A DNA stretch of 64,000 nucleotides from Burkholderia sp. USMB20 (GTDB lineage Bacteria > Pseudomonadota > Gammaproteobacteria > Burkholderiales > Burkholderiaceae), in NCBI RefSeq assembly GCF_000949135.2, contig NZ_JTAN02000021.1:992001-1056000 (forward strand), read 5' to 3'. Below are positions 13,087-64,000 of this stretch, piece after piece (positions within the stretch are counted from its first letter, which is position 1; each line of letters starts with the position of its first letter). Below the pieces are notes generated by a model. That model did not search any database. It was given only the letters and a program-made list of their open reading frames with translations, and had not been told where the DNA came from. The position numbers and the translations under genes were made by a program.

Positions 13087-13993
13087 CGTCCCGCCTCGTT
13101 CGTCTCGCCCGTTTCGCCCGTTTCGCCCGTCTCGTCCGTTTCATCCGTCTCGAGCGCATCGACGAACACGCTCATCGCCAGCAGGTCGGCCGCGCCGCCC
13201 GGGCTCAGCCGGCGCGCGACGAACGCGCGGTGCGCAGCGGCCGCGTGCAGTCGCCAGTCGCGGGCGCGGATGCCGCCGCGGGCAACGAATGCGCGTGCCG
13301 TGGCACGCGCGAAATCGAGGCCGGCCTGCCCGCCGCGGTGCAGCAGGTTCGTATCGTCGAGCGCGGCGATCAGCGCGAAGCAGGCGTCGACGCGCGCGGC
13401 CTCCGGATCGTCCGGCACGCAGCGCTGCGCGCGGCGCAGGGCCGGCAGCCCGACGCCGTACACGTCGTGAACCCGTCGGCCGCCTCGCGACGCGCGCCGC
13501 CGACGCCGTAGCGGCGGCTCGCGCGCTCGCCGTGACTGTCGGGCAGCCGCGGGCCGCCGAGGATCTCGGTGCCCCAGCGCCGCGCGACGAACGCGCCGAG
13601 CGTCAGCGTGCGTGCCGCGGTGCCCGGCACCGTGCGGCGGCCGGCGGCCGCGCACAGCAGCCCGAGCCCGAAGATCGCGCCGCGATGCGTGTTGACGCCG
13701 CCGGTCGCGGCAAGCATCGCGTGTTCCGCGCGCAGCCCGATCTTGCGCAGCACGGCCATGTCGGCGTCACGCGCACCGGCATCGGCGAGCTCCGCGAAGT
13801 ACGGCCGCAGCACGGCCGCGCTGCGCACGAACATCGTGGCATCCATGTCCGCGTGACTGCCGGTGTCGACGTGACTGACGAGGCCCGGCTTCGGATAGGT
13901 GTCGATTTCCAGCACGAGGCTGTGCTCGGCGAGTTCGGCGATGCGCTCGGCATCGGACGGCGCCGGCGCGCGGCAGGCGGCCCACGCACTCAT
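13083..13993 (-). pseudogene. mdcB: mdcB, triphosphoribosyl-dephospho-CoA synthase, frameshifted as read
   Basis: MdcB makes the 2'-(5''-triphosphoribosyl)-3'-dephospho-CoA precursor of the MdcC prosthetic group. The first frame (from 13993) encodes the CitG/MdcB N-terminus and core, including LEIDTYPKPGLVSHVDTGSH and GGVNTHRGAIFGLGLL, up to REAADGF near 13470. The continuation VYGVGLPALRR, DDTNLLHRGG and the C-terminal LSPGGAADLLA is in a second frame down to 13083. One missing base near 13463-13472 explains the break; restoring it gives about 303 residues, the family length. Both outer junctions (ATGA with mdcG and with mdcH) are intact, so this is either a recent mutation or a sequence error. 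Confidence 0.85.
13092..13154. repeat. 9-bp tandem repeat at the 3' end of mdcB
   Basis: Seven imperfect copies of a 9-bp unit (plus-strand type CGTTTCGCC) encode a tripeptide run of the type D/G-E-T at the C-terminus of MdcB. Being a multiple of three, copy-number change would not shift the frame. Confidence 0.8.
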
Positions 13994-14658
13994 CGCGTGC
14001 CTCCGGTGAATGCGTCGGCAGGCATCAATTCGACGGCGATCGCCGTCTTGACCGCGACTTCAGGCAGCCGCGCATGCAGCTCGCGCCAGTTCACGCCGGC
14101 GCCGTCGTCGCGCAGCAGTTCGCCGTCGATGCGCATCGGCGCGCGTGCGTCGAGTGTCGCCAGGCCGTCGAGCAGCGCGGCGAGCGATGCGGCGTCCGGC
14201 AGCGGAAACACGAGGTCGAGATCGGACGACGCGCTCAGGTAGCGCTCTCCCGTCAGCGCCTGCCATGCGAGGCTGCCGAATACGCGGCCCTGCACGCCGC
14301 AGCGGGCGCCGAGCGCAGCCAGGTCGCGCAGCGTCGCGTGCCATGCGTCGGGCGCGACAGCGAGCACATCGGCGAGCGTGGGCAGCGGACCGACCGACGC
14401 GAGCGCGTCGGCGGCGACGTTCATTGCAATGCGCCGCTTGCCCGCCGAAGGCGGCAGCGGCAAGCCGAGCGGGATGCGCCCCGCATCGGCCTCGTCTGGC
14501 GACGCGCGGCGCACGATCAGCGGCCAGCCGTGCGCGGCCCACGCCTGCACGAGCGGATCGGCCGCCAGCGCGGGATCGCGCGCGCAGGCCGCGCCCCACC
14601 CGGCCGCCGTCAGCGTGACGAGCGTGTGGCGGCGCAGCGGCGTGTCAGCGTGCGGCAC
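13990..14658 (-). CDS. mdcG: Malonate decarboxylase holo-ACP synthase
   Basis: A 222-residue phosphoribosyl-dephospho-CoA transferase that attaches the triphosphoribosyl-dephospho-CoA group to the Ser of MdcC. It has the nucleotidyltransferase-like block RVFGSLAWQALTGERYLSASSDLDLVFPL, with the SDLDL acidic pair for metal binding. I chose the GTG at 14658: it gives the short family N-terminus (PHADTPLRRHTLV) and a 14-nt overlap with mdcE, the same spacing used between mdcD and mdcE. Upstream in-frame codons lie inside mdcE and read as arginine-rich junk. Confidence 0.88.
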   Translation of the reverse strand: MPHADTPLRRHTLVTLTAAGWGAACARDPALAADPLVQAWAAHGWPLIVRRASPDEADAGRIPLGLPLPPSAGKRRIAMNVAADALASVGPLPTLADVLAVAPDAWHATLRDLAALGARCGVQGRVFGSLAWQALTGERYLSASSDLDLVFPLPDAASLAALLDGLATLDARAPMRIDGELLRDDGAGVNWRELHARLPEVAVKTAIAVELMPADAFTGGTR

Positions 14659-49996: not shown

Positions 49997-50004
49997 AAAA
50001 ACAA

Positions 50005-50038
50005 AAAACCCGCGAGCGGCTGGTTTCTCGCGGGTTTT
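50005..50038. terminator. Terminator of the tRNA-Leu gene
   Basis: AAAACCCGCGAG and CTCGCGGGTTTT form a near-perfect stem. Minus-strand sequence after the hairpin is GTTTTTCAGG, about 35 nt beyond the tRNA 3' end. Confidence 0.8.
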
Positions 50039-50070: not shown

Positions 50071-50415
50071 TGGTGCCGGGGACCGGACTCGAACCGGCAA
50101 GCCAGTTAAGGCGGCGGATTTTCGTCACACTGCTTCTTTCAAAGCCGGCGTCGTCGAAACGAAGCCGTTCGTGCGCTGGACTATGCCTTCGCCGTCGCGC
50201 GCGGGCGGTGTTGCCGCTCGTGCGCCTTAGGCGCCCCCCGTCTAGTCTCTACACCTTCCTCGCCGCAGTCGTACCGCGAGGCTTGGCTCGGCGTTGCCTC
50301 GACGCACGGCGCGCGTCAGGGGTTTCACCGAATTTGAAGGGTTCTGCACCGGTCGTTTCCGGCCGGGCACTCAATCGTTTAAGTCCGCTATGTTTACCAA
50401 TTTCATCACCCCGGC
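50071..50415 (-). tRNA. tRNA-Leu(UAA), interrupted by a group I intron
   Basis: The exons join to an 87-nt tRNA. The acceptor stem GCCGGGG/CCCCGGC has an encoded CCA (50071-50073). The anticodon stem GCGGA/TCCGC encloses the loop CTTAAAA, giving anticodon UAA (leucine). The long class II variable arm is present, and the T-arm reads GCCGGTTCGAGTCCGGT. The 5' exon is 50381-50415 (35 nt) and the 3' exon 50071-50122 (52 nt). The intron splits the anticodon between positions 34 and 35. A TAGAAT at 50431-50436 (complement) could be the -10 box. Ordinary tRNA searches that do not allow introns would miss or misplace this gene. Confidence 0.95.
50123..50380 (-). other. Group I intron (258 nt) in tRNA-Leu(UAA)
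   Basis: The intron follows U34 and ends in the required G (position 50123). P1 can form between exon ACUU and intron GAGU, giving the conserved U-G wobble at the 5' splice site (intron G at 50372). Core elements are visible: P-like AATTCGGTGAAACCC, Q-like GCCGAGCCAAGCC, R element AGAGACTAGACGG (about 50238-50250) and S element AAGGCATAGTCC (50178-50189). The GACTA of R pairs with TAGTC of S as P7. Insertion site and the runs GAGCCAAGCC and GGAAGGTG-AGAGACT match what is known of the cyanobacterial Anabaena tRNA-Leu intron (subgroup IC3). No open reading frame lies inside, so it should be self-splicing without an encoded maturase. Confidence 0.93.
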
Positions 50416-62387: not shown

Positions 62388-62660
62388 GACATCTCTCCAA
62401 AACATGGGTTTAAGGAGCCGAATAGACGGACGACATCGCGGGAAATGACAGCCGCTGCGAAATTTTTTTTGTGAGGTCGCGCGAAGGCGCGCCATGTTGC
62501 ACCGCTTCGCCGCGGCCGGCCGAGCCGTGGGGCCGCGCGGCGGCGACGCGCGCTGTCATTTCGACGGGCCATCACACCGCCCGCCATGCTGCGGCCGCAC
62601 CGGGATGGCCGATCCCGTCCCGGTTGAAACCGCCGCCAAGCCAGTGTATCGTGTGCGCTG

Positions 62661-64000
<1,340 letters not shown>

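What the first reader, a model, noticed from the sequence alone, without database searches (positions are those of the whole stretch)
50071..50415. tRNA-Leu(UAA) gene split by a 258-nt group I intron in a Burkholderia-like genome
Seen: two exons (50381-50415 and 50071-50122) join to a full class II tRNA with anticodon UAA; the intron begins after U34 and ends in G. P7-forming R and S elements and the GAGCCAAGCC and GGAAGGTG-AGAGACT runs are present. Known: the same insertion site and core are found in the tRNA-Leu(UAA) intron of cyanobacteria and plastids, and group I introns are scattered in a few proteobacterial tRNA genes (for example tRNA-Ile(CAU) of Azoarcus). Inference: this intron shares ancestry with the cyanobacterial type by ancient retention or transfer, and the cell depends on its self-splicing for UAA/UAG-type leucine decoding.
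Basis: partly seen in the sequence, partly recalled or inferred. Interest (0 to 1): 0.85.

Follow-up and report, generated by a model that had tools for sequence, protein, structure and literature searches.

The report
Self-splicing intron hides leucine tRNA gene
A leucine tRNA gene in this Burkholderia-like genome is interrupted by a self-splicing RNA of a well-known kind, which hides the gene from common annotation tools and, in related insect and fungus symbionts, seems to leave the reading of two leucine codons wholly dependent on such RNAs.

Summary
Window 50071-50415 (minus strand) is a tRNA-Leu(UAA) gene cut after U34 by a 258-nt group I (IC3-type) intron. Covariation over 48 relatives supports the core, with P3 and P7 pairing in every counted cell. 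Intron-free alleles, some in the same gene neighbourhood of a related genus, match the joined exons. All 65 same-genus genomes carry the intron, and none shows an unsplit copy.

It is a new member of a known kind. Its nearest relatives are other Burkholderiaceae and then beta/gammaproteobacterial tRNA introns; a special tie to the cyanobacterial intron has no positive support but is not rejected.

The unexpected part lies outside the window. Rfam's cut-off and default ARAGORN miss these genes. In 8 of 8 Mycetohabitans- and Candidatus Vallotia-type genomes both tRNAs that read UUA/UUG, Leu(UAA) and Leu(CAA), carry such introns. In Vallotia tarda default ARAGORN finds no tRNA reading UUA or UUG, although a third of leucine codons are UUA/UUG. 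Its Leu(UAA) gene sits on a plasmid published as having no tRNA genes. Splicing is inferred, not shown.

The parts
50381..50415 (-). 5' exon of tRNA-Leu(UAA), tRNA positions 1-34
   Evidence: ARAGORN with introns; same sequence in intron-free alleles
50123..50380 (-). group I (IC3-type) intron, 258 nt; two mechanical ORFs that overlap it (123 and 130 aa) match no Pfam family
   Evidence: RF00028 30.2 bits; covariation; model R1, trained on this and related introns, hits 65 of 65 same-genus genomes; ORFs
50071..50122 (-). 3' exon of tRNA-Leu(UAA), from A35, CCA encoded
   Evidence: ARAGORN
50369..50384 (-). P1: exon ACUU with intron GAGU, U34.G at the splice site
   Evidence: splice-site pair U-G in 45 of 48, C-G in 3; outermost pair absent in 24 of 43
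50349..50366 (-). P2 with GAAA loop
   Evidence: 86% of cells paired, all 7 pairs with two-sided changes; one C.A mismatch in the window itself
50234..50341 (-). P3 (50338-50341 with 50234-50237)
   Evidence: 100% of cells paired, all 4 pairs with two-sided changes
50288..50331 (-). P4, P5 and its outer hairpin
   Evidence: 97.9%, 100% and 87.1% of cells paired
50254..50286 (-). P6 and P6a
   Evidence: 100% (never varies) and 82.2% of cells paired
50179..50247 (-). P7 (R 50243-50247 with S 50179-50183), pseudoknot with P3; holds the G-C pair of the guanosine site (mapping recalled)
   Evidence: 100% of cells paired, that pair G-C in 48 of 48; six different P7 pairings, exact complement found in 128 of 129 introns
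50190..50233 (-). P8
   Evidence: 100% of cells paired
50126..50175 (-). P9 region with GAAA hairpin (50132-50145)
   Evidence: 86.1% and 92.5% of cells paired
50003..50038 (-). likely intrinsic terminator after the tRNA (G/C-rich stem, then six T)
   Evidence: read from the sequence; not listed by the simple scan, which allows loops of 3-8 only

Best explanation
The only tRNA-Leu(UAA) gene of this Burkholderia-like bacterium is interrupted in the anticodon, between U34 and A35, by an IC3-type group I intron. After transcription the intron folds (P3-P8 core, P7 guanosine site), pairs the end of the 5' exon with its guide GAGU (P1), uses a free guanosine to cut after U34, and joins U34 to A35 with release of the intron, giving a normal tRNA that reads UUA and helps with UUG. 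The intron has no recognisable endonuclease gene and has most likely been inherited with the locus in Burkholderiaceae, with precise loss in some lineages. Shown: gene, joined product, conserved fold, no unsplit copy in the sampled genus. Inferred: self-splicing, guanosine use, need in the cell, that the window's own genome has no other copy.
For: Joined exons give a complete tRNA. Fold: 92.1% of 2582 cells paired against 72.3% in shuffles and 33-41% when slid; 483 two-sided changes against 158. The exact P7 complement is found in 128 of 129 introns, a reversed control 5-mer in 4 of 129. 65 of 65 same-genus genomes have an R1 match, and in each the best match to the joined exons is one exon half. 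At least 86 of 299 family genomes (my count of listed rows) have an unsplit gene 89-98% like the joined exons; all 30 of these that were fetched are tRNA-Leu(UAA) by ARAGORN. In genus g28 three filled and three empty sites share upstream genes, and the three empty ones form one clade (100/99).
Against: No splicing data. Rfam score below its gathering cut-off; only 15 of the 41 R1-positive Pseudomonadota genomes pass it. R1 was trained on related introns, so its hits are not independent of this reading. The window's own assembly is not held. In one search the genomes also show an unsplit match at about 80% identity, taken as tRNA-Leu(CAA) but read in one genome only (L020). The minimum-energy fold is only mildly better than shuffles (z -1.71).
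Confidence: 0.93

Rival explanations
1. The intron descends specifically from, or was transferred from, the cyanobacterial tRNA-Leu(UAA) intron.
For: Same tRNA and same insertion site in the cyanobacterial rows; AU test does not reject one clade of window-type and cyanobacterial introns (p 0.249; p 0.386).
Against: Cyanobacterial introns are the least similar of the groups compared (57% mean core identity); the whole-intron tree joins window-type introns to beta/gammaproteobacterial ones (91/90, not starred); a single clade of all Leu(UAA) introns is rejected (p 0.001; p 0.003). Only four cyanobacterial rows were available.
Confidence: 0.08
2. The intron is present but no longer splices well, and the tRNA gene is decaying because UUA is nearly unused in this GC-rich genome.
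For: 0 UUA among 360 leucine codons in ten window genes; the window P2 has a C.A mismatch.
Against: Core and exons conserved in the 14 same-genus genes aligned, present in 65 of 65 genomes; two-sided changes keep the helices paired; an AT-rich relative that uses UUA heavily keeps the same kind of intron.
Confidence: 0.04
3. Intron presence in the family reflects repeated lateral gain rather than descent with loss.
For: Patchy presence inside genera g19, g23 and g28; the core-only tree does not recover all window-type introns as one clade (22 rows only; a single clade is not rejected, p 0.406); one filled g28 genome (G105) lies in a different neighbourhood.
Against: In the whole-intron tree window-type introns form one clade (99/94) within which rows of one genus often group; filled and empty sites share a neighbourhood in g28, and in part in g19 and g23; the empties of g28 form one clade; no recognisable endonuclease; no match in 50,697 phage records.
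Confidence: 0.15

Closest known systems
[quoted passage not shown]
   Same: Same tRNA, same site (U34/A35), same core (four cyanobacterial rows; plastids recalled, not compared)
   Different: Different P3-P8 and P9 sequences, lowest identity of the groups compared; no support for a special common branch, nor rejection of one
Azoarcus-type tRNA-Ile(CAU) intron of betaproteobacteria (the name Azoarcus is recalled; the rows are Polynucleobacter, Comamonas and others)
   Same: Very similar core, GAAA loops in the P2 and P9 regions
   Different: Sits after position 36 of another tRNA; separate clade (100/99)
Beta/gammaproteobacterial 'type B' introns in tRNA-Leu(UAA) and tRNA-Leu(CAA) (my label)
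   Same: Same site and tRNA family; sister clade of the window type (91/90)
   Different: P7 GAGCA/UGCUC instead of GACUA/UAGUC; different 3' domain
tRNA-Ile2 introns in Acidovorax and Burkholderia noted by the tRNAscan-SE 2.0 authors (PMC8450103, passages seen)
   Same: Group I introns in tRNA genes of these bacteria, not detected by standard tRNA tools
   Different: Another tRNA; three of 65 same-genus genomes have a second intron of this sort, after U33 of tRNA-Ile(CAU)

Membership tests
Group I intron | P3/P7 pseudoknotted core with P4-P6 and P8 | tested here: met
   P3, P5, P6, P7, P8 100% of cells paired; two-sided changes in P3 (4 of 4 pairs), P7 (3 of 5), P8 (3 of 4), P4 (2 of 6); P6 never varies
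Group I intron | U.G pair at the 5' splice site in P1 | tested here: met
   window U34.G; 45 of 48 U-G, 3 of 48 C-G, the latter all Leu(CAA)
Group I intron | Last intron base is G | tested here: met
   One of the four equivalent registers ends in G and is the one taken; the choice itself uses this rule, so it is a weak test
Group I intron | Match to the Rfam family at its curated cut-off | tested here: not met
   30.2 bits against 50; 0 of 21 relatives over the cut-off though 13 match at E<=0.001. A property of the model's cut-off, not a chemical feature of the family
Group I intron | Guanosine-dependent self-splicing | not testable with these tools
   no wet work
Subgroup IC3 | Compact core without the P5abc extension, in a tRNA anticodon loop | tested here: met
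   P5 is a short hairpin; absence of P5(a-d) from IC3 as stated in PMC11835236 (passage); other IC3 criteria recalled, not tested
Cyanobacterial tRNA-Leu(UAA) intron lineage | Same tRNA and insertion site | tested here: met
Cyanobacterial tRNA-Leu(UAA) intron lineage | Groups with cyanobacterial introns in a tree | tested here: inconclusive
   not grouped; grouping not rejected

The most novel reading that the evidence does not exclude
In Mycetohabitans and the insect symbiont Candidatus Vallotia, UUA and UUG leucine codons are read only through tRNAs that must be freed by two ribozymes of different lineages. The hidden tRNA-Leu(UAA) gene on the shrunken plasmid or chromid helps explain why that replicon is kept, and published tRNA counts for these genomes are incomplete. 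A bolder, weaker extension (a few percent): in GC-rich Burkholderia, where UUA is very rare, splicing could gate the few UUA-containing genes, as the rare-codon tRNA bldA does in Streptomyces (recalled).
Probability: 0.6. Interest if true: 0.65.

Novelty: new member of a known kind. Interest (0 to 1): 0.5.

Why it matters
The intron is ordinary chemistry in a known setting, but it hides a needed gene from common annotation tools, so tRNA inventories of other proteobacteria may be wrong in the same way. The Vallotia/Mycetohabitans case offers a natural test of complete dependence on ribozymes for a set of codons, and gives a concrete candidate reason for keeping a decayed plasmid. Filled and empty sites in one gene neighbourhood of one genus make intron loss testable.

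Tried and rejected
Rfam at its gathering score found nothing at the gene; rejected as a refutation after the local search and the covariation count. A first tree from core columns only was poorly resolved, had many long branches and did not recover all window-type introns as one clade; I rebuilt it from whole introns after dropping 18 long or odd rows (129 to 111). A single origin of all Leu(UAA) introns was rejected by the AU test. tRNA names printed by ARAGORN for some rows are mis-registered introns: before the trees 11 rows were relabelled as Leu(UAA) and 9 as CAU tRNAs with a site after U33, by reading the exons. Folding energy was uninformative; promoter scan empty. Endonuclease: two mechanical ORFs over the intron gave no Pfam match. 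R1 missed two genomes (G498, G509) that RF00028 matched below its cut-off. The window's species was not identified. Paper searches (open-licence library only, listings and some passages seen) showed no report of tRNA-Leu introns in Burkholderiaceae.

Full report
What is there. On the minus strand, window 50381-50415 and 50071-50122 are the two halves of an 87-nt class II tRNA-Leu with anticodon UAA, separated by 258 nt. ARAGORN finds the gene only when introns are allowed. Four registers give the same tRNA because A's are repeated at both ends; the one that follows U34 ends the intron in G and gives the usual U.G pair in P1. Rfam's group I model matches at 30.2 bits, E 9.2e-6, under the 50-bit gathering score, so the whole-window search lists nothing here. 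Two mechanical ORFs overlapping the intron (123 and 130 aa) match no Pfam family at E up to 1.

Is the fold real? I aligned 48 introns (chosen for diversity from 129) and counted a structure with P1-P9 and the P3/P7 pseudoknot drawn on the window. 92.1% of 2582 cells are standard pairs, against 72.3% in shuffles and 33-41% when the partners are slid; 483 cells carry two-sided changes against 158 in shuffles. P3, P5, P6, P7 and P8 pair in every counted cell, and one G-C pair of P7 is invariant in 48 of 48. Because the structure was drawn on one of the rows, the slid control favours it somewhat; the two-sided changes depend on that far less. Over 129 introns six different P7 pairings occur, with an exact complement found in 128 (in the other, L114, a G.U pair is needed), while a reversed control 5-mer was found in 4 of 129. 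Against: in P1 the outermost pair is absent in 24 of 43, and 3 of 48 have C-G at the splice site.

Joined product and loss. All 30 of them that were fetched in that call are tRNA-Leu(UAA) without intron by ARAGORN. Sixteen intron-free genes, 14 of them among those 30, were laid beside intron-bearing ones after removal of the intron and read straight through the junction. In g28 three empty and three filled genomes share upstream genes that also lie beside the window's tRNA; a fourth filled one (G161) shares only the nearest of them and a fifth (G105) none; filled and empty genomes of g19 and g23 also share some upstream genes (whose output was cut in part). A protein tree of three of those genes puts the three empty g28 genomes in one clade (100/99) among filled ones, with the deeper branching unresolved. 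Precise loss is the simplest reading; lateral gain is not excluded.

How general. All 65 same-genus genomes match the model R1, five of them twice. In none is there an unsplit match near the identity expected for tRNA-Leu(UAA): the best match in each is one exon half. The genomes also show an unsplit match at about 80%, which in the one case I read is tRNA-Leu(CAA) without intron (L020). The window's own assembly is not held. In a sample of 398 Pseudomonadota genomes R1 matches in 41 and RF00028 passes its cut-off in 15, all 15 among the 41; RF00028 below its cut-off adds two that R1 lacks. R1 was trained on relatives, so this compares sensitivity only. For 72 of the 80 ARAGORN called a tRNA around the intron; after relabelling by exons 40 are tRNA-Leu(UAA), 9 tRNA-Ile(CAU) after position 36, 9 tRNA-Arg(CCU), 7 CAU tRNAs after U33, 5 labelled Leu(CAA) and 2 others.

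Relationships. In the whole-intron tree (111 of 129 rows) the window belongs to a clade of 34 Burkholderiaceae introns (99/94), beside a beta/gammaproteobacterial clade with both tRNA-Leu(UAA) and tRNA-Leu(CAA) introns (91/90, not starred). The core-only tree recovers only 22 of the window-type rows as a clade, though a single clade is not rejected (p 0.406). Four cyanobacterial introns lie elsewhere and are the least similar group (57% mean core identity), but a joint clade with the window type is not rejected (p 0.249 and 0.386), whereas one clade of all tRNA-Leu(UAA) introns is (p 0.001 and 0.003).

Need in the cell. In ten window genes UUA occurs 0 times among 360 leucine codons and UUG 16 times. 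The dependence here concerns a rare codon. It is very different in reduced symbionts of the same family.

Symbionts. A search of plasmid records hit Mycetohabitans (9 records) and Candidatus Vallotia (4), plus three short matches elsewhere. Genome G028 has contigs of 1,123,864 and 72,431 bases, the sizes given for Vallotia tarda in PMC8692619, whose Table 1 lists 41 tRNA genes on the chromosome and 0 on the plasmid (passages). Default ARAGORN on this genome (chromosome except its last 64 bases, plasmid 1-59,800) also finds 41, whose leucine anticodons are only GAG, UAG and CAG: none reads UUA or UUG by the usual rules. With introns allowed it adds tRNA-Leu(CAA) on the chromosome (234-nt intron) and tRNA-Leu(UAA) on the plasmid (262-nt intron). 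In 431 mechanical long ORFs UUA is 4424 and UUG 2182 of 20,108 leucine codons, 33% (about 10 kb was counted twice). All eight genomes tested, four Vallotia-sized and four of 3.3-3.8 Mb, have exactly two R1 introns, one in each of these tRNAs, and only split matches to either mature tRNA at high identity. Default ARAGORN finds no tRNA on any of the 16 loci. Names rest on contig sizes or hit positions for G028, G091, G049 and G118, and on group membership for the other four.

What is in print on this. PMC8692619 and PMC8857208 name argG and tyrB as possible reasons why the plasmid is kept, and neither holds the word intron in its main text (passages and term counts). [quoted passage not shown] the introns there may well include this one, but the passages I saw do not mention a split tRNA. 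I did not read these papers whole.

Verdict. A confirmed, ordinary group I intron in a tRNA gene, not found described for this gene and family in my searches, with a wider consequence worth following: hidden tRNA genes, and symbionts whose UUA/UUG decoding appears to rest entirely on ribozymes.

Noticed in passing
L072, L074, L077, L080, L081, L089, L155, L164: tRNA-Leu(CAA) introns sit after C34, so the 5' splice site has a C-G pair where group I introns normally have U.G (8 of 8 rows; also in the 8 Mycetohabitans/Vallotia-type genomes).
   Followed up: partly
L083/L170 (Pararobbsia alpina) and L080: A tRNA-Leu(UAA) intron that falls among tRNA-Leu(CAA) introns in the trees, which suggests a move between the two tRNA genes (the AU tests allow Leu(CAA) introns as a clade of their own).
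   Followed up: partly
L076 (G249) and L082 (G303): tRNA-Thr(UGU) with a group I intron, read as lying between U34 and G35, in one same-genus genome and one g28 genome.
   Followed up: no
L018 (G011): tRNA-Arg(CCU) with a 213-nt intron as a second intron in one same-genus genome.
   Followed up: no
L290, L291, L292; L087, L088, L168: tRNA-Ile(CAU) introns inserted after U33, a second site in that tRNA; three of 65 same-genus genomes have one.
   Followed up: partly
L086 (G129): Two tRNA-Ile(CAU) genes about 5 kb apart, each with its own intron, in a small Polynucleobacter-like genome.
   Followed up: no
L302 (Klebsiella pneumoniae plasmid NZ_CP139688.1): A tRNA with an alphaproteobacterial-looking group I intron lies near aac(3)-IId on a conjugative plasmid; similar short hits in one Acinetobacter and one Aeromonas plasmid. 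Described only.
   Followed up: no
window 62658-62774: TPP riboswitch, 64.5 bits.
   Followed up: no
window 13955-14049: ARAGORN reports a tRNA-Asp with anticodon ATC, probably a false call.
   Followed up: no
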